NCBI RefSeq assembly: GCF_016772315.1
Contig: NZ_CP053482.1
Coordinates: 2,604,001-2,668,000, forward strand
DNA length: 64,000 nt
Direction of reading: 5' to 3'
Source of the DNA: Thiothrix subterranea
GTDB lineage: Bacteria; Pseudomonadota; Gammaproteobacteria; Thiotrichales; Thiotrichaceae
Under the pieces are notes generated by a model. The model was not told where the DNA came from and did no database searches. It saw only the letters and a list, made by a program, of their open reading frames with translations. The translations under genes were made by a program, and so were the position numbers. Below are positions 9,030 to 17,584 of this stretch, piece after piece; position 1 is the first letter of the stretch; each line of letters begins with the position of its first letter.

Positions 9030-9073
9030 TGCGGGCGGCGGTGCGTTGATTTTACCCAAGCTGGAGACAGACC

Positions 9074-9336
9074 GCAGTGGATAACCGCACGCCCTAGCGT
9101 TTGGGGCAAGATTTGTTTGGAAATGGCAGTCTTGCGCCCGTACACCCAATACAAGCCGGTGTATGGCGACATCGAAACCACCGTCAGCTTTGATGACGAA
9201 CATGCCAACTACGCCTTGTTGCAATCAGGCTGGGATGGGGATGACTACCTGCATGGCGCGATTGTCCATATCCGTTTGATCGACGGCAAAATCTGGATTC
9301 AGTATGACGGCACGGAAGAAGGCGTTGCTACCGACC
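9074..9336 (+). pseudogene. Degenerate xisI-like copy 1 (internal deletion, 3' truncated)
   Basis: Closely matches the intact xisI-like gene at 12800: homology begins at CAGTGGATAACCGCACGCC, jumps from GCGCCCGTAC to the segment encoding YKPVYGDIETTV, so an internal stretch is lost, and stops after the codons for DGTEEGVAT at about 9336. There it abuts the 3' end of the opposing methylase gene, whose last residues are read from antisense xisI sequence. It encodes no full-length protein. The rest of 9030-9298 shows no other gene. Confidence 0.8.
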
Positions 9337-11470
9337 AGGCAATCACCTGTTGTTGTATGGGTACGATTGCAATTTGTTGAGCTGCCCGATGCAAGGCACT
9401 GCATACTGCATCAAATCCCAATGCCTGTGATGATAAAACGACCAGCATTTGGGAGGCAATAATCACGAAGCGGTCTCCGCTAGAGATCGACATTCCCGCG
9501 TTTTCCAGCCGCTTTGCCAATGTCTTGGCGTTGACAATGGCAGCCTTCTCATCCAGATAAACAGTAGCTACAGATCGCTTCTTGCAGACCAGGATGGCAT
9601 CCAAACTAATGGGGTCTTTCGTCGCTGTTTTGGGGCTTGCGGCACGTAATTCTGCATGGACGGGATGCGCGGCAACCACTACCAAGCCAGCCGACGTAAT
9701 CGCTTCGTAAATAGCTGCCCAACCTTCGACCCGCGAATGGTGGAAACTGAACGCCAGTACCCCATCATCCTTCAACACCCGCTGGCACTCCGTAAACACC
9801 GCTGCAAGCTGTCGAGCAAATACCCGCGAATCTTTATGCTGAACTTCGCCAGGAGCAGAAGAATCCGCCCGTTCAAACCATGCGTAACGCCCTTTCAGCA
9901 CGGGCGACAACCACGCAAAGAAAAAGTCACTCAATTCACTGTAATGGACGAAATCGAAATAAGGCGGATCAGTCACCACCGCATCAACCGATTTAGCGGG
10001 AATTGGCAAAGTAGCACTGTCACCATTCAACACCATCATGGCATTCGGTATTGCTTTGAATTGCGCCCATGAATCCACCCGTTGCACATCAATCGCTGAA
10101 CTGGCTACTGTTTTAATTGCCCCTAAACGTTCACCGAATAATGTCCGCTGAAAATCCACTTCAAACGGTTCATCCAGATAGCGTTTTGCCCGCAGCAAGC
10201 GGGATTCAAACAGCGTGCTAAATGTGCCGCTACTTTTATCCGTCCCCCACACCGAGTTTTCGAGCGGCGCACGTTCCGGTTTCAGGATGTGGTGTGAAAA
10301 CATGTGGCGGACTGCGCCCGTGCCTTCGCCCTTGAAGCTGCAAAACATATTGTTGAATTCCAGCGTACCGGAAAACAAACACAGCATTTGCTCCTGAACC
10401 GCTACATCTTCAATTTCAAGGATGCTGCGCAATAGCAACCCCAAGCACAACAATTGGCGGGCATTAAAGAAATCGCGCCAATGGCGGTAGTTATATCCCA
10501 GCGCCTGATCGGTATTATGGCCTGAGCGGACAGCCAAAGTCGGGAGCGGTAAATCTTCCTGCACTAATCGGGTTTCAGCATCGGTATATAAAGCCCGGTC
10601 TTCATCGCGAACGGGGAGATAGATTTTCTCACCATTGGGTCGGAGAGCCATCATCGCATACATGCGCTGCGCCAGTGGTTTATCAGCAGGCAACAGGTCT
10701 TTAATCCGGTAGCGTTTGCCGTTTTGGGCAGTGACGTATTGCCCCGCTGCTTTCCCCTGCTGGGGATTGAAAGACTGGGCGCAATGCGGACAAACGACAT
10801 CCACAGCATCGTAACGGTTTTCCATCACCTCCCAACAAGCAGGGCAAACCAGTTGGGCTTTCGGCTTTTTCTTCGGATAAGCATTTTGGGAAAACACATA
10901 GCGGGAAAACAGCGGAATGGTTTCGTTTTCCGGGGTTGTGACTGTCTTGACCCAAAAGCAATACAGCACCGGGATAAGTTCACCGGACACGGGGTCGCGG
11001 GTCTGGTAATAACGGCGTATTTCAGGGGCAACTTGTGCTTCAAGGCGGGCAAACGCGGCACGTAATTCCGGTTCTGGAACACGGGTAAATGCCTGCCGTA
11101 CCTGAAACGTGCTGACCGGGTTGATGTCGCAGCCAATGGCTTTTGCCCCCAGTTTGGTGGCTTCGCCCAAGGTCGTGCCACTGCCCATGAAAGGGTCAAG
11201 CACCACTTTGCCGCTGAGTTGGTGGTGTTTGTAAAAGCTTTGCCAAACATCCGTTCCCGGCTCGCTCAAGGCTGCCAAGGTAATGCCCCGGAACACTGAA
11301 CCCAAACGTGTCGCCCACCATTTATGGATGTGGTAAATCGGGCGGTTGATTTCCTTGCGCCAGCTTTCCTGTTCGGCAATCTGGCTGATTTCAACAATCG
11401 GGAAATCGCCTTCAATCGCGGTGGTTTCGCTGGTAGGCAGGAACGGGATGGTGTGGGCGGTGGTGTTCAT
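9299..11470 (-). CDS. DNA methylase with embedded zinc ribbon
   Basis: A 723-residue amino-DNA methyltransferase. The AdoMet-binding motif DPFMGSG is at residues 92-98 and the catalytic motif DPPY at 501-504. Between them lies a putative zinc ribbon (CPAC at 209-212, CPHC at 227-230). This layout resembles the adenine-specific DNA methylases with a Zn ribbon (COG1743 type). The gene overlaps the upstream endonuclease-like gene by 4 bp (ATGA), so the pair is probably a restriction-modification unit. The C-terminus (WSVATPSSVPSY) is encoded on the antisense of a xisI fragment, so the original end was probably replaced. Target sequence unknown. Confidence 0.82.
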   Translation of the reverse strand: MNTTAHTIPFLPTSETTAIEGDFPIVEISQIAEQESWRKEINRPIYHIHKWWATRLGSVFRGITLAALSEPGTDVWQSFYKHHQLSGKVVLDPFMGSGTTLGEATKLGAKAIGCDINPVSTFQVRQAFTRVPEPELRAAFARLEAQVAPEIRRYYQTRDPVSGELIPVLYCFWVKTVTTPENETIPLFSRYVFSQNAYPKKKPKAQLVCPACWEVMENRYDAVDVVCPHCAQSFNPQQGKAAGQYVTAQNGKRYRIKDLLPADKPLAQRMYAMMALRPNGEKIYLPVRDEDRALYTDAETRLVQEDLPLPTLAVRSGHNTDQALGYNYRHWRDFFNARQLLCLGLLLRSILEIEDVAVQEQMLCLFSGTLEFNNMFCSFKGEGTGAVRHMFSHHILKPERAPLENSVWGTDKSSGTFSTLFESRLLRAKRYLDEPFEVDFQRTLFGERLGAIKTVASSAIDVQRVDSWAQFKAIPNAMMVLNGDSATLPIPAKSVDAVVTDPPYFDFVHYSELSDFFFAWLSPVLKGRYAWFERADSSAPGEVQHKDSRVFARQLAAVFTECQRVLKDDGVLAFSFHHSRVEGWAAIYEAITSAGLVVVAAHPVHAELRAASPKTATKDPISLDAILVCKKRSVATVYLDEKAAIVNAKTLAKRLENAGMSISSGDRFVIIASQMLVVLSSQALGFDAVCSALHRAAQQIAIVPIQQQVIAWSVATPSSVPSY

Positions 11471-12246
11471 GCGTCCGTACCCGCCATTACGACAGATTTT
11501 GATGCCTGAGTTACCAAGCGGTAGGCGATGAATTTGCGTTCTGTTCCCGCGCTCGGATTGGGAATACGTTCAGCAGTGAGGGTGTTAGTGCGCAAATCGA
11601 AGCTGTAACCGACGACCAATGTATCAGCCTCAACACGGATCAGGCGACCGACTTCCTGAAAGCGTGCATCCGCCTTAAAGCCTTCGGGAACAATCAGGGT
11701 CATCAACCCGGTCGTTCCTTCGGTGAGGGCAAACGGTGTGGGTGCGACGTACATTTTGCGATCACGGATCATGATGTCGCCGAAAGTGCCGAAACCTTTG
11801 ACGTTTTTGTTCTTGTGTTCGTAGTGGTGATCGGCGTTGAGGAAATCGCCGTGGCAAACCACCAGATCGACCACCGGGTATTGCCGCCGCCCACTCAGCT
11901 CTGAATAGCCTGACAGGTCTGCTGGGTAACGCCCGAACACGTAGAAAATCTGCCGTCCGTTGTGGTAGCCAGTCGGTACTTGGCTGTTGGAATCGTAATC
12001 ACGCTCGCGCCCCGGCCATGCTAGCCCCTTGACCTCATAACCCTCGGCGTACTCAACCAAAGAAAAGTCGGGGTAAGTGTTGCGCCCCGCGCCCTCGTAA
12101 TGCAGCGTAAGTATCTGGAGACGTTTCTCAAACCAGTTTTGGAAGTGGAATTCCTTGTCCTTGGCGCTGACGGATTCAATGAGTTCACCTGCCTGCACTG
12201 CGAGTACGCACTGTTCAAACACATCAAAGCAGGTTGTTGAGGTCAT
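11467..12246 (-). CDS. Putative restriction endonuclease (PD-(D/E)XK fold)
   Basis: A 259-residue protein starting at 12246, where AAAGGA gives a good ribosome site; an ATG 30 bp upstream is less well placed. A candidate nuclease core is PD at residues 59-60 followed by EVK at 71-73, the PD-x(n)-ExK pattern of many restriction enzymes. Coupling with the methylase (4-bp overlap) supports a restriction role. I see no other family signature, so the assignment is inference from motif and neighbour. Confidence 0.65.
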   Translation of the reverse strand: MTSTTCFDVFEQCVLAVQAGELIESVSAKDKEFHFQNWFEKRLQILTLHYEGAGRNTYPDFSLVEYAEGYEVKGLAWPGRERDYDSNSQVPTGYHNGRQIFYVFGRYPADLSGYSELSGRRQYPVVDLVVCHGDFLNADHHYEHKNKNVKGFGTFGDIMIRDRKMYVAPTPFALTEGTTGLMTLIVPEGFKADARFQEVGRLIRVEADTLVVGYSFDLRTNTLTAERIPNPSAGTERKFIAYRLVTQASKSVVMAGTDA

Positions 12247-12296
12247 GGGGAGTTCCTTTGCTGGAGGATGAAACAAGGTGCTTCATTATAGCGGTT

Positions 12297-12629: not shown

Positions 12630-12641
12630 AAAGGTTATTTC

Positions 12642-12720
12642 ATGGCGCGGTTATCCCTATCCGTTTGATTGACGGCAAAATCTGGATTCAGTATGACGGC
12701 ACGGAAGAAGGCGTTGCTAC
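12642..12720 (+). pseudogene. Degenerate xisI-like copy 2 (core fragment)
   Basis: Encodes only GAVIPIRLIDGKIWIQYDGTE and a few further residues, matching the central part of the intact gene that begins 80 bp downstream. Both ends are abrupt. It lies in the 550-bp stretch 12247-12799, which otherwise holds only the MerR remnant and a palindrome pair. Confidence 0.75.
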
Positions 12721-12799
12721 CACTCTCCACAAACCAGATTCTCACGGTAGCATTTTACTGCTACGCTTTTGTTATCTCGTGAATGACGGTGTAACGACC

Positions 12800-13303
12800 A
12801 TGACGATTCCTGTACAACCTCCGCCAGAAGATCAGCACATGCTGGAAACGGCAGTGGATAACCGCACGCCCTACCGTTTAGGGCAAGATTTGTTTGGAAA
12901 TGGCAGCCTTGCGCCCGTACTGACTGATTCGCTGAAACGCCAGATTCGGGAGAAATTGCGTGCCAAGCACCGCTCACCCACAGACTACCCCGCGCTGATC
13001 AAGCGCATTCTGCTGGAGTACACGAAATACAAGCCGGTGTATGGCGACATCGAAACCACCGTCAGCTTTGATGACGAACATGCCAACTACGCCTTGTTGC
13101 AATCAGGCTGGGATGGGGATGATTACCTGCATGGCGCGATTGTCCATATCCGTTTGATCGACGGCAAAATCTGGATTCAGTATGACGGCACGGAAGAAGG
13201 CATTGCTACCGAATTGCTGGAAGCGGGTGTGCCGAAAGAGCATATCGTGTTGAGATTTCGGCATCCCAGCGAACGGAAATATAGTGGGCTGGCTGTGGCG
13301 TGA
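12800..13303 (+). CDS. XisI-like protein (element excision controlling factor family)
   Basis: A 167-residue protein from ATG 12800. The C-terminal 110 residues match the XisI family, first described as a control factor for excision of the cyanobacterial fdxN element: YKPVYGDIETTVSFDDEH, DGKIWIQYDGTEEGIA, ELLEAGVPKEHIVLRF. An N-terminal extension of about 55 residues (LGQDLFGNGSLAPVL) is unusual for XisI. No XisH partner is adjacent. XisI-like genes are common outside nif excision elements, so a role in DNA rearrangement here is unproven. Three partial copies of this gene lie nearby. Confidence 0.7.
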   Translation: MTIPVQPPPEDQHMLETAVDNRTPYRLGQDLFGNGSLAPVLTDSLKRQIREKLRAKHRSPTDYPALIKRILLEYTKYKPVYGDIETTVSFDDEHANYALLQSGWDGDDYLHGAIVHIRLIDGKIWIQYDGTEEGIATELLEAGVPKEHIVLRFRHPSERKYSGLAVA

Positions 13304-13384: not shown

Positions 13385-13576
13385 ATGTACAGAAAGTTTG
13401 AATGGGATGAGAACAAAAACCGCACCAACCAACAAAAACATGGAGTTGATTTCGATACCGCTAGTTATGTGTTTGATGATCCTAACTTTTTGAGTGAACA
13501 GGACAGGATAGTAGACGGGGAAGAACGCTGGCAGACGATTGGATTAGTCGGCGGATTTGAAGAGAAAATATTATGA
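13385..13576 (+). pseudogene. brnT: BrnT-type toxin, C-terminally truncated
   Basis: The N-terminal 50 residues are BrnT-like: YRKFEWDENKNRTNQQKHGV, FDTASYVFDDPNFLSEQD, GEERWQTIGLVGG. The frame ends at 63 residues with FEEKIL, whereas BrnT is normally about 90 residues with a basic C-terminal strand/helix (HT.R....IRIISAR). The last part of the RNase fold is therefore missing, and the stop overlaps the brnA ATG by 4 bp. The toxin is probably inactive. Confidence 0.75.
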
Positions 13577-13851
13577 ACAGGCAGCTTTCCGATAAACAGA
13601 TTGCGATGCTCAAGGCATTGGCAGACAAGCCGGATGAAGACATTGACCTGAGCGACATCCCGGAAGCTGGTGATGATGCTTGGAAGAATGCTGTACCCGG
13701 TGAGTTTTTTCGTCCTATCAAGAAACAGATTACCGTGCGGATTGATGCGGATGTACTGGCTTGGCTGAAGTCGAGTGGCAATGGCTACCAAACCCGGTTG
13801 AATCAGGTATTGCGGGAAGCGATGGAAAAAACGGGCAAACGGGCGGCGTAA
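13573..13851 (+). CDS. brnA: BrnA-type antitoxin
   Basis: A 92-residue protein with a ribbon-helix-helix C-terminus: KKQITVRIDADVLAWLKSSG and GYQTRLNQVLREAME. The N-terminal half (IDLSDIPEAGDDAWKNA) is the BrnT-binding region typical of BrnA. It overlaps brnT by 4 bp. The gene looks intact although its toxin is shortened, so it may persist as an orphan repressor. Confidence 0.85.
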   Translation: MNRQLSDKQIAMLKALADKPDEDIDLSDIPEAGDDAWKNAVPGEFFRPIKKQITVRIDADVLAWLKSSGNGYQTRLNQVLREAMEKTGKRAA

Positions 13852-13861
13852 GTTCCTTGCC

Positions 13862-14008
13862 CATATCCGTTTGATCGACGGCAAAATCTGGATTCAGTAT
13901 GACGGCGTTGCTACCGAATTGCTGGAAGCGGGTGTGCCGAAAGCGCATATCGTGCTGGGATTCCGGCATCCCAACGAACGGAAATATAGTGGGCTGGCGG
14001 TGGCGTGA
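13862..14008 (+). pseudogene. Degenerate xisI-like copy 3 (3' fragment)
   Basis: Repeats the last third of the intact gene (HIRLIDGKIWIQYDG, then ELLEAGVPKAHIVLGF, ending in GLAVA), with a 9-bp deletion in the DGTEEG region. The flank after its stop, GTGATCAGGCAGCCACCTGC, is identical to the flank after the intact copy at 13303. The brnTA locus is thus bracketed by direct repeats of xisI 3' end plus flank. Confidence 0.8.
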
Positions 14009-14012
14009 GTGA

Positions 14013-14267
14013 TCAGGCAGCCACCTGCTGCTGTTCAGCCTTCATCTCTTCACGGATGACACGGCGCAAGATGGTTTCCAGTGATTCGCCCTGCTGCTTG
14101 ATGTGTGCCTTCAATGCTTCGTTGATCAGGCTTTGGTAATTGCCACCGCCTTCCACCTGCTTCCGAAACCACTCAACTACATTAAGGGCGATGTAACGCT
14201 GTTTACCATGCAATGCTAAATCTTTGATGTGGGCATAAGTTATCCTTGGTTTATCTGGAAAAATCAA
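14013..14267 (-). CDS. Ribbon-helix-helix antitoxin-like protein (BrnA/CopG type), orphan
   Basis: An 84-residue protein; the segment KQRYIALNVVEWFRKQVEGG with NYQSLINEALKAHI resembles the DNA-binding part of BrnA-like antitoxins. The tail EEMKAEQQQVAA is hydrophilic. No toxin gene is adjacent. The last codons (about 20 bp) are also duplicated after the intact xisI at 13306, showing that this gene was once directly downstream of xisI in convergent orientation. Start choice is uncertain. Confidence 0.55.
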   Translation of the reverse strand: MIFPDKPRITYAHIKDLALHGKQRYIALNVVEWFRKQVEGGGNYQSLINEALKAHIKQQGESLETILRRVIREEMKAEQQQVAA

Positions 14268-14309
14268 GCGTAAATATTGACATTCAAGTGTTTTATAACT
14301 AGAGTTCGG

Positions 14310-14455
14310 ATGTGGGAGTGGTATCTTTTTGATAAGCTCCTTTATAAAGAAGTGAATCTAATAAGCTAATCATGTGAAAACATGATTTAAGGAATGAAAT
14401 CCTTAGACTTCATTCGTGAAGTATCAAATAATCTCGAAACAACCTACTCCCACAT
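14310..14455 (+). ncRNA. Candidate structured RNA upstream of the SLATT-RT module
   Basis: A perfect 10-bp closing stem pairs ATGTGGGAGT (14310-14319) with ACTCCCACAT (14446-14455). Inside are four consecutive hairpins: TATC/GATA around five T (14322-14334), AATCATG/CATGATT with loop TGAAAA (14368-14387), TAAGGA/TCCTTA (14388-14405), and ACTTCA/TGAAGT capped by TTCG (14407-14422). This multibranched fold lies 18 bp upstream of the SLATT gene. Several defence-associated RTs use an upstream non-coding RNA as partner or template, so this is a candidate for that role; expression is inference. Confidence 0.5.
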
Positions 14456-14473
14456 TATTTATAGCATCGCATC

Positions 14474-15058
14474 ATGTCAAACCTTTCAGATAATATTTGG
14501 TTTACTCGAAAAGCAAGAATTCAAACATCAGAACGACTGCTAAGCAATGACAATCACTCACAAATAATGCTGATAGTTTACTCTTTGATTAGCCTGATTT
14601 TATCAATAGTTTTACTCAAAAATACACAAGCCATAGGGGCTTATTCAGATATGATTGGAGTGGTCATGTCTTTGATTATAACAATAATATCTCTTGTGAT
14701 TGGAGGGAAAAACTTTAAAGGACGTGGTTTATCACTTAAAAATCACTATATTTCATTGCAGAGATTATATTTAAGAGCAATTGATGCAGAAGCTAATAAT
14801 GATCTTGATAAGCTTGCGATAATTAGAGAAGAGTACAATAATATTTTAGAACTAGAAGAAAACCATCATTCAATTGATGATATTGTTTTTCGAGTACTAA
14901 ACCGACAAAATTTAACCACTAGAAAACCGAACAAGATGGAGATATTAATTGCGTACTCATATAAAGTAATACGTTATGCGACTATAGTATTTATTTACAT
15001 ATTTCCATTTGCTATGGCGATATACTTGTTAATAAAAAACAATATCCAAATATCATGA
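14474..15058 (+). CDS. SLATT-domain membrane protein (predicted pore-forming effector)
   Basis: A 194-residue protein with two close membrane helices (about residues 31-50 and 60-78), a charged helical region (about 95-150) and a third helix near the C-terminus (about 167-187). This layout, with the N-terminal pattern IWFTRKARIQTSERLLSND, matches the SLATT superfamily (SMODS- and SLOG-associated two-TM effectors), particularly the branch found beside reverse transcriptases. Such proteins are predicted to kill infected cells by membrane disruption. The stop overlaps the RT start by 4 bp (ATGA). Strongly AT-rich, unlike the rest of the window, suggesting transfer. Confidence 0.75.
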   Translation: MSNLSDNIWFTRKARIQTSERLLSNDNHSQIMLIVYSLISLILSIVLLKNTQAIGAYSDMIGVVMSLIITIISLVIGGKNFKGRGLSLKNHYISLQRLYLRAIDAEANNDLDKLAIIREEYNNILELEENHHSIDDIVFRVLNRQNLTTRKPNKMEILIAYSYKVIRYATIVFIYIFPFAMAIYLLIKNNIQIS

Positions 15059-15249
15059 GTGCATATGTATACTTCAAAAAATGGTTTTCAAAGCCTCAGT
15101 TAATAAAAACGTATGAGGAACATATTAAAGATAGCTCTGCAATTGGAATTGATAAAATCAATAAAGATGTATTTTTACGTGATCATTTAAAAAATATTGA
15201 TATAATAGACATTATTCCAAAATCTCAACTTATTGATGGTTAAATGAAT

Positions 15250-15666
15250 TCAGTAGTTTTTGATTCGCATGGCAGTGCGCAAATTGTGCAAACCACAAGC
15301 GATTTCCATCACTAAATCATCAAAATCTTCCACGTAGTTGCGGAAAATATCTTTGACGCACCGACACCGTTTGATACCGCTGTTCACATGTTCAATGACC
15401 ACCCGAATGCTAGAAATGGCACGATTATGCGCTTTATCCTTATCACTCAAGGGTTTACCTCGTGGCTTTTTCTTGGGTTGGTGGACAACTGCCCCGTCAC
15501 CCGAATTATGCCCCAGATAGCCCAAATCCCGGTAAATCTCATACCCTTCTGGCACTTTCACGCCTTCCTCATCCGCGATACGTTTGTCATGGTCTTTGCC
15601 GCGTCGTGTTTCTCCCAAGTATTTGATTTCACGATCTTCTAAGCCTGCTATTATGTTGTTCTTCAC
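15250..15666 (-). CDS. IS5-family transposase, second frame
   Basis: A 138-residue frame with the remaining catalytic residues: aspartate in YRDLGYLGH and glutamate in RVVIEHVNSGIKR. It is expected to be made as a fusion with the upstream frame by -1 slippage on the A8 run. Both frames look intact, so the element may be active. Confidence 0.82.
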   Translation of the reverse strand: MKNNIIAGLEDREIKYLGETRRGKDHDKRIADEEGVKVPEGYEIYRDLGYLGHNSGDGAVVHQPKKKPRGKPLSDKDKAHNRAISSIRVVIEHVNSGIKRCRCVKDIFRNYVEDFDDLVMEIACGLHNLRTAMRIKNY

Positions 15667-16157
15667 CGAATGGAATTTTTTTTGCCGCTGTAGTATTCCT
15701 CCTGAACCCCAATGTCAGTCGGACGTTGAATACGGCGTTCTGTCGCATCCAAGCCAAGCGCTTGTGGCATTTCATGCGAAAGGCGTTCCAATACCTCTTC
15801 GGGGAGTCTGGCCGGGGAATGTCCCATGCTTTTTAAGCTCGACTGCAAAACGGGACACAGGCGATGTATCCACCGATTGGCTAACCCTTGGGACATATTG
15901 AAGGAGTAGCCCAACACTTCTTGCAGTGGGTAAGTCTTCAAATAATACAGAATAAAGAACAACTTATCTTCGATCGTTGTCAGGTTGCCGGGGCGACCTC
16001 GCTTCGTTTCACTCTCATGACCATCCACAATCAACTGCGCCGTGTATGCCCGTTGAAAATGGGGCAACAGTTTGGTGAATTCACCCAGATCTATGCCTGT
16101 CATGGCGCGGAAGGTTTTGCTCTTGCCTTTGAGCGCATGGTAGCTGTACTCTGTCAT
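15663..16157 (-). CDS. IS5-family transposase, first frame
   Basis: From ATG 16157 (MTEYSYHALKGKSKTFRAM) this frame carries the helix-turn-helix region and the first catalytic aspartate in LGLDATERRIQRP. It ends SGKKNSIR just after an A8 run on the minus strand (15676-15683). A -1 slip there would join it to the next frame as SGKKKFHSVKNNII, the usual continuation in this group, so a programmed frameshift is likely. An upstream ATG at 16223 is less likely. Confidence 0.82.
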   Translation of the reverse strand: MTEYSYHALKGKSKTFRAMTGIDLGEFTKLLPHFQRAYTAQLIVDGHESETKRGRPGNLTTIEDKLFFILYYLKTYPLQEVLGYSFNMSQGLANRWIHRLCPVLQSSLKSMGHSPARLPEEVLERLSHEMPQALGLDATERRIQRPTDIGVQEEYYSGKKNSIR

Positions 16158-17388
16158 GAGTGTTCCGTTCCCTTGGTGAAAATGATGATCATAGGTTGTA
16201 GCGCATTCCCGTTGATTTTTCACATGATTTGTTGACTAGGGACAAGTGCGAGATTTTGGAATAATGTCTAATAAATAAAAAAGTTAGTAATGATGGCTAT
16301 AATTTTACCCCATATAAAAAGAAACTAATTTCAAAAGGTGAAAATAAATTTCCTCGAATCATATCGATACCTACTATCAGAGACAGATTGACACTTAGAT
16401 CTCTATGTAACTTATTATCGGATACTTATCGGAATGATCTCTCAATAGAGATTGCTCAAGCAAAAATTGATTATGTAAACAAAGCAATAAAAGAAAAAAG
16501 GTATACGGCATATATCAAGATTGACGTTAAAAATTTCTATCCATCTATTAATCATGAAGTTTTGATAAAAAAACTACAAAGAAAGATAAGAAAAAAAGAA
16601 ATCATTAATTTAATAAAAAAAGCAATCACAAATAATAACGTAACGAAATCAAAGAAGGAAACTCAACATCCCAATCATACTGGAGTACCTCAAGGACTAT
16701 CTATATCAAATATATTAGCTGAAATATATATCTCGGACATCGACAAGAAATATCAAAAAAGAGATGATTTATTTTATACTAGATACGTAGATGATATTTT
16801 AGTTTTTTGCAATGAGAATGATGTCAAATCTATATTTGAAGATCTAAAAAAAAGCATTAACAAGGAATGTCTTGAAATTCACGAATTAAACGAGGACGGG
16901 TCAAAATGTCAATTAGGAGATATAAATGATGAAATTCATTTTTTGGGATACAAATATAAGGATAGAACATCATCCATAATAGAAAGGAATCGCGAAAAAT
17001 TTGAAGATTCAATAGCATCCATATTTACAGCCTATAAATATAGATTTGATAATGCAAAAAATGAGAGTGAACGAATTAACACAACCAATGTATTAGAATG
17101 GAGGCTGAACTTAAAAATTACAGGATGTATATTTAAAAATCAAAAAAGAGGATGGATGTTTTATTTTTCTCAGATCGAGGACATATATTCATTATACAAG
17201 ATAGATCTTGCTATAAAAAAAATGGCATCAATATTTTGCAAAAGAGAACTAAAAATAAAAAGTCTAGTGAAAACCTATCATGAAACAAAAAGATTAAAAG
17301 CATCATCACACAAATATATAGTTAACTTCGATAAACTTTCTATAAGTGAAAAAAGAGATATTCTTGAACGTTATCTTGGATATAAAAG

Positions 17389-17413
17389 CCTTTCATCTGC
17401 CTCAGATGAAAGG
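17389..17413. repeat. Perfect hairpin inside the RT coding sequence
   Basis: CCTTTCATCTG and its exact complement CAGATGAAAGG are separated by 3 nt, within codons for SLSSASDER near the RT C-terminus. An 11-bp perfect stem in AT-rich coding DNA is unusual. Confidence 0.5.
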
Positions 17414-17584
17414 ATAGAACATTTTTTCAACATGCGAATAAGTCATATAATCAAAGAATTGGAGCAAGATATAGGTGATGTGTCTTAAGGATTCATCTGT
17501 TTTTAATTCAATGAAAAAGATAATCTGTAAAATGTAGTCATTATTATTTATTGATAGATGGACATAAGTAGAGTTTGAAGGTTC

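What the first reader, a model, noticed from the sequence alone, without database searches (positions are those of the whole stretch)
14310..14455. Multibranched structured RNA candidate just upstream of the SLATT gene
A perfect 10-bp closing stem (ATGTGGGAGT with ACTCCCACAT) encloses four successive hairpins, one capped by TTCG, in 146 bp ending 18 bp before the SLATT start. Such a fold is unlikely in random AT-rich DNA and resembles the position of non-coding RNA partners of defence RTs and the a1/a2 closing repeats of retrons.
Basis: partly seen in the sequence, partly recalled or inferred. Interest (0 to 1): 0.8.

Follow-up and report, generated by a model that had tools for sequence, protein, structure and literature searches.

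The report
DRT10 template RNA beside transposon-broken reverse transcriptase
The structured stretch is the template RNA of a recently described anti-phage system (DRT10) whose enzyme copies a few RNA letters over and over, telomerase-style; in this bacterium a transposon has cut the enzyme's gene in two, so it is a known kind of system, probably out of action here.

Summary
The fold is real: 146 nt, MFE -42.2 kcal/mol, z = -5.8, 0 of 200 shuffles as stable. It is the noncoding RNA of a DRT10 (UG17 RT + SLATT) phage-defence locus, a system published in October 2025 (PMC12632851). A covariance model built from 13 homologous loci, without this window or its nearest relative, finds window 14309-14456 (+) as its only hit in the window (E 5.5e-7) and in the whole 4.08-Mb genome. 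Covariation is strong: 22 of 27 pairs carry double-sided changes, and 92.9% of cells pair against 45-54% when partners are slid. The same model finds the E. coli RNA that carries the published Eco3DRT10 template, over 137 nt. A near-consensus promoter ends just upstream, and the RT ends in the serine that primes DNA synthesis in DRT10. The retron a1/a2 comparison does not hold. The template repeat in this RNA can only be guessed: 11 nt or 8 nt. This is a new, decayed member of a known kind.

The parts
14277..14305 (+). Sigma-70-like promoter, TTGACA-17-TAGAGT; expected start about 14311, the 5' end of the RNA
   Evidence: Pattern scan, 10 of 12 matches; such matches occur about 1.6 times per shuffle of the region, so support comes mainly from position
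14309..14456 (+). DRT10 noncoding RNA, about 148 nt
   Evidence: Only hit of covariance model R1 in window and genome; fold z = -5.8; covariation
14309..14321 (+). Closing (central) stem, 5' arm
   Evidence: 13-bp stem with 14444-14456; homologous stems of different sequence in nearly all related loci
14325..14365 (+). First internal hairpin (SL2 position), weak here; its 3' part holds most of the conserved motif GTGAATCTAATAAG
   Evidence: fold; motif conserved in A2, A3
14368..14387 (+). SL3 hairpin
   Evidence: homologous helix 100% paired with double-sided changes
14388..14405 (+). SL4 hairpin, variable in the family
14407..14422 (+). SL5 hairpin, ACTTCA-TTCG-TGAAGT; by homology the template boundary element
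   Evidence: helix 4 covaries; role from PMC12632851
14423..14443 (+). Template loop. Candidate A-B-A': AAA-TAATCTCG-AAA (14426-14439, 11-nt repeat) or ATC-AAATA-ATC (14423-14433, 8-nt repeat)
   Evidence: significant over the family, not for this sequence alone
14444..14456 (+). Closing stem, 3' arm
14474..15058 (+). SLATT_5 membrane protein, 194 aa, intact; putative effector
   Evidence: Pfam SLATT_5 6e-31; PADLOC RTasSLATT 8e-49; NCBIfam SLATT_5 138 bits, cut-off 60; 55% identical to intact relative
15055..15206 (+). UG17 RT, N-terminal piece (residues 1-50)
   Evidence: PADLOC RT_UG17 2.6e-8, profile 1-51; collinear with residues 1-50 of the intact 455-aa relative
15207..16269 (-). IS5-like insertion sequence splitting the RT gene (transposase on the minus strand); ends are 20-bp perfect inverted repeats, probable TA target duplication
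   Evidence: HTH_Tnp_4 and DDE_Tnp_4; 8 copies in the genome, one other 100% identical
16270..17488 (+). UG17 RT, C-terminal piece (405 codons) with YVDD and C-terminal serine; first in-frame start TTG 16388, past RT motif 1
   Evidence: PADLOC RT_UG17 4e-114; collinear with residues 51-455 of the intact relative

Best explanation
The element is the noncoding RNA of a DRT10 anti-phage locus: promoter, template RNA, SLATT gene, UG17 RT gene. Shown here: a conserved, covarying RNA immediately upstream of SLATT-UG17 operons, specific to them in the sequence searched. Inferred by homology to Eco3DRT10: the RT binds this RNA, primes DNA synthesis from its own C-terminal serine, copies a short template just 3' of the SL5 hairpin, and slips back via an A-A' match to make tandem-repeat single-stranded DNA, in the manner of telomerase; SLATT is the membrane effector and how the DNA acts on it is unknown. 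In this genome the RT gene is split after codon 50 by a multicopy IS5-like element, so the system is most likely inactive.
For: RT is UG17 by profile and SLATT matches RTasSLATT. Homologues keep SLATT directly upstream of the RT in almost all complete loci. Model R1, built without this window, finds exactly this interval. Covariation 0.536 against 0.209 shuffled and 0.08-0.16 slid. The model also finds the RNA of E. coli L119, where the loop reads CAATGATTC-CAAT, A's fourth base is nucleotide 110 and the RT is 456 aa ending in Ser, all as published for Eco3DRT10. The window RT ends ...GDVS; 50 of 62 homologous open frames end in Ser and 9 in Tyr. A-B-A' is enriched across the family, 68 against 40.5 +/- 4.2, 0 of 5000 shuffles. 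RT fragments are collinear with an intact relative.
Against: No expression, RT-binding or cDNA data for this locus. The window's template repeat is only 3 nt and not significant alone. SL2 is weak here. R1 covers neither SL4 nor the most distant homologues (L030-L032, L034, L035 did not reach E 0.1).
Confidence: 0.95

Rival explanations
1. A cis-acting 5' leader (riboswitch or attenuator) that only regulates SLATT-RT expression.
For: It sits 18 bp upstream of the SLATT start, in the same direction, below a promoter-like sequence.
Against: No Rfam family, no intrinsic terminator. The orthologous RNA binds the RT, templates cDNA and is required for defence in E. coli (PMC12632851).
Confidence: 0.03
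2. A retron msr-msd whose a1/a2 repeats form the long stem.
For: A long inverted repeat upstream of an RT; weak similarity of the RT to the St85 retron model (51 bits).
Against: Far below that model's cut-off of 235; UG17 RT with SLATT; conserved DRT10 architecture and C-terminal Ser.
Confidence: 0.01
3. Chance inverted repeat in AT-rich DNA.
For: None found.
Against: z = -5.8; independent model hit at E 5.5e-7; covariation.
Confidence: 0.005

Closest known systems
DRT10 (UG17), Eco3DRT10 type (Tang et al. 2025 preprint, PMC12632851)
   Same: Order RNA-SLATT-RT; central stem with four hairpins; template loop 3' of SL5; YVDD; C-terminal Ser; RNA length about 140 nt
   Different: RT gene here is split by an IS; loop sequence and repeat differ; RNA 148 against 137 nt; host is a Thiothrix-like bacterium, not E. 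coli
DRT9 (UG28)
   Same: Class 2 UG RT with an upstream RNA of comparable shape, protein-primed (as stated in PMC12632851)
   Different: DRT9 templates poly-dA from a conserved poly-U loop; the window loop has no such tract, and the RT matches UG17 far better than Drt9 (4e-114 against 3.5e-16)
Retrons
   Same: Structured RNA with long closing repeats near an RT
   Different: Different RT family; no retron model passed its cut-off
Telomerase RNA
   Same: Short template with an alignment segment and a boundary hairpin, by analogy drawn in PMC12632851
   Different: Analogy only; not tested here

Membership tests
DRT10 | UG17 reverse transcriptase | tested here: met
   RT_UG17 4.3e-114 (profile 91-429) and 2.6e-8 (profile 1-51); best by a wide margin
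DRT10 | SLATT gene adjacent, upstream of the RT | tested here: met
   SLATT_5 / RTasSLATT; start codon of the RT overlaps the end of SLATT
DRT10 | Structured RNA upstream of SLATT matching the family model | tested here: met
   R1 hit 14309-14456, E 5.5e-7; model excludes the window
DRT10 | Compensatory covariation of the RNA stems | tested here: met
   22 of 27 pairs with changes on both sides, score 0.536 against 0.209
DRT10 | C-terminal Ser (or Tyr) primer residue | tested here: met
   Ends GDVS; priming itself not tested
DRT10 | A-B-A' template pattern after SL5 | tested here: inconclusive
   Enriched over the family; window match only 3 nt, p about 0.8 alone
DRT10 | Intact, active RT | tested here: not met
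   Split by IS at 15207-16269; this bears on function in this strain, probably lost, not on the descent of the locus
DRT10 | Tandem-repeat cDNA and phage defence | not testable with these tools
   Needs sequencing and plaque assays
Retron | Retron-type RT | tested here: not met
   St85 model 51 bits, cut-off 235
DRT9 | Drt9 RT and poly-U template | tested here: not met
   Drt9 3.5e-16 against UG17 4e-114; no U-tract in 14423-14443

The most novel reading that the evidence does not exclude
The RNA and the intact SLATT gene may keep a function without a whole RT (for example the two RT pieces reassembling, or the RNA acting on SLATT directly), so that the locus is a natural RT-less state rather than a dead one.
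Probability: 0.04. Interest if true: 0.6.

Novelty: new member of a known kind. Interest (0 to 1): 0.3.

Why it matters
It shows that the DRT10 template RNA can be picked out of raw sequence, and it adds a sulphur-bacterium lineage (relatives of Thiothrix) with an intact close relative in a Thiothrix MAG. It is also a natural RT knockout with SLATT and RNA left intact, which suggests, if SLATT is expressed, that SLATT without its RT is not lethal; the published catalytic mutants point the same way. It does not open a new question of its own.

Tried and rejected
Rfam: no family in the whole window. Phage records by tblastn: none. RT hits around 1e-40 to 1e-51 in other genomes of the class (L008-L027) are probably other RT groups: they are far weaker than the true UG17 hits, and R1 finds no RNA at the sixteen of them that were searched (L008-L023). 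More genomes of the family, order and phylum gave few true UG17 loci; viral contigs gave most homologues. A simple stem search picked a wrong stem in L063, where R1 found the right RNA upstream, and gave no convincing stem in L049, L031 or L075/L076. The window's template repeat could not be settled from one sequence. Structure prediction was not run because profile and motif evidence already decided the RT family. The whole genome was not available as a file.

Full report
Observation. The ten-base arms 14310-14319 and 14446-14455 are perfect complements, 18 bp before the SLATT start codon. The 146-nt stretch folds at -42.2 kcal/mol against -22.8 +/- 3.3 for shuffles, z = -5.8, with a central stem and four inner hairpins, the last capped by TTCG. 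The finding is accurate.

Surroundings. ORF 14474-15058 is a SLATT_5 protein. It overlaps by a few bases an ORF at 15055 whose 62 codons match the first 51 positions of the UG17 RT profile. The rest of the RT, profile 91-429, E 4e-114, lies at 16388-17488. Between them is an IS5-like element with its transposase on the minus strand, 20-bp perfect terminal inverted repeats at 15207-15226 and 16250-16269, and eight copies in the genome, one other 100% identical. Comparison of three copies gives ends next to TA, consistent with a TA duplication. The two RT pieces align without gap or overlap to residues 1-50 and 51-455 of the intact 455-aa RT of a Thiothrix MAG, 63% identity for the large piece. 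The first in-frame start of the downstream piece is TTG 16388, past RT motif 1 (sequence). I infer that the RT is inactive and the insertion recent. No other convincing UG17 copy exists in the genome (the remaining matches are E 2e-22 or weaker, apart from the N-terminal piece of this one).

Relatives. UG17 loci were collected from plasmids, genomes and viral contigs. SLATT lies directly upstream of the RT in nearly all complete ones. Upstream of SLATT, almost every locus has a long inverted repeat at about -130/-180 to -15/-35, with different sequences in different lineages. A motif close to GTGAATCTAATAAG follows the first hairpin in the homologues.

Test of homology. Thirteen homologous RNAs, with neither the window nor the Thiothrix relative among them, were aligned and made into covariance model R1. 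R1 hits the window once, at 14309-14456 on the + strand, 35.2 bits, E 5.5e-7, and that is its only hit in the 4.08-Mb genome. It hits 28 of 44 loci searched. On the resulting alignment 92.9% of cells pair; 22 of 27 pairs have changes on both sides; the covariation score is 0.536, against 0.209 for shuffles and at most 0.156 for slid structures. The alignment was fitted to the structure, so absolute values lean towards it; the slid control and the diversity of pair types make the conclusion safe. R1 finds nothing at sixteen class-level loci of weaker RT hits (L008-L023), nor at the two weaker RT loci of the same genome (L002, L003).

Link to the published system. Tang et al. (PMC12632851) describe DRT10: UG17 RT, SLATT protein and a 137-nt RNA upstream of SLATT, with a central stem and four smaller stem-loops; serine 456 primes; the template A-B (CAATGATTC, deduced from cDNA GAATCATTG) lies after SL5 and is followed by A' (CAAT), with U110 the fourth base of A. 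In an E. coli locus fetched here (L119) R1 finds a 137-nt RNA; its loop reads CAATGATTCCAAT, the fourth base of A is number 110 counted from GGATGG, and the RT has 456 residues ending in Ser. This ties the model, and through it the window, to the tested RNA. 185 of 5426 E. coli genomes carry that locus.

Template here. A-B-A' is enriched in the loops of the family, 68 against 40.5 +/- 4.2, 0 of 5000 shuffles; 45 against 27.4 +/- 3.4 for twelve lineages. In the window only 3-nt matches exist: AAA-TAATCTCG-AAA (11 nt, better placed by homology) or ATC-AAATA-ATC (8 nt, nearer SL5). Neither is significant alone.

Working. By homology: the promoter at 14277-14305 makes the RNA; the RT binds it, primes from its C-terminal serine, and adds DNA repeats by copying and slipping back; SLATT is the effector. 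All these steps are inferred from the published system. Here the chain is broken at the RT.

Verdict. A genuine DRT10 RNA, known kind, in a locus that is probably dead.

Noticed in passing
15207-16269: IS5-like element in the RT gene; 8 copies in the genome at 93-100% identity
   Followed up: yes
9071-9334, 12641-12721, 12848-13303, 13847-14028: Several partial and near-identical copies of an XisI-family gene (Pfam PF08869; repeats) around the defence region, as if copied or recombined
   Followed up: partly
13385-13851: BrnT/BrnA toxin-antitoxin pair; a further BrnA-like fragment at 14013-14267 (-), weak
   Followed up: partly
9299-12276 (-): DNA methylase (N6_N4_Mtase, 723 aa) next to a 269-aa protein with no Pfam or NCBIfam match, possibly its restriction partner
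   Followed up: partly
L067, L068, L069, L070, L080, L030 (RT C-termini): A lineage whose RTs end in GY, so Tyr replaces the C-terminal Ser, as reported for Eco1DRT10
   Followed up: partly
E. coli 510016 NZ_CP025851.1 3288127-3290885: An E. coli DRT10 copy whose SLATT gene is annotated in two parts with an IS1 between: another natural disruption
   Followed up: no
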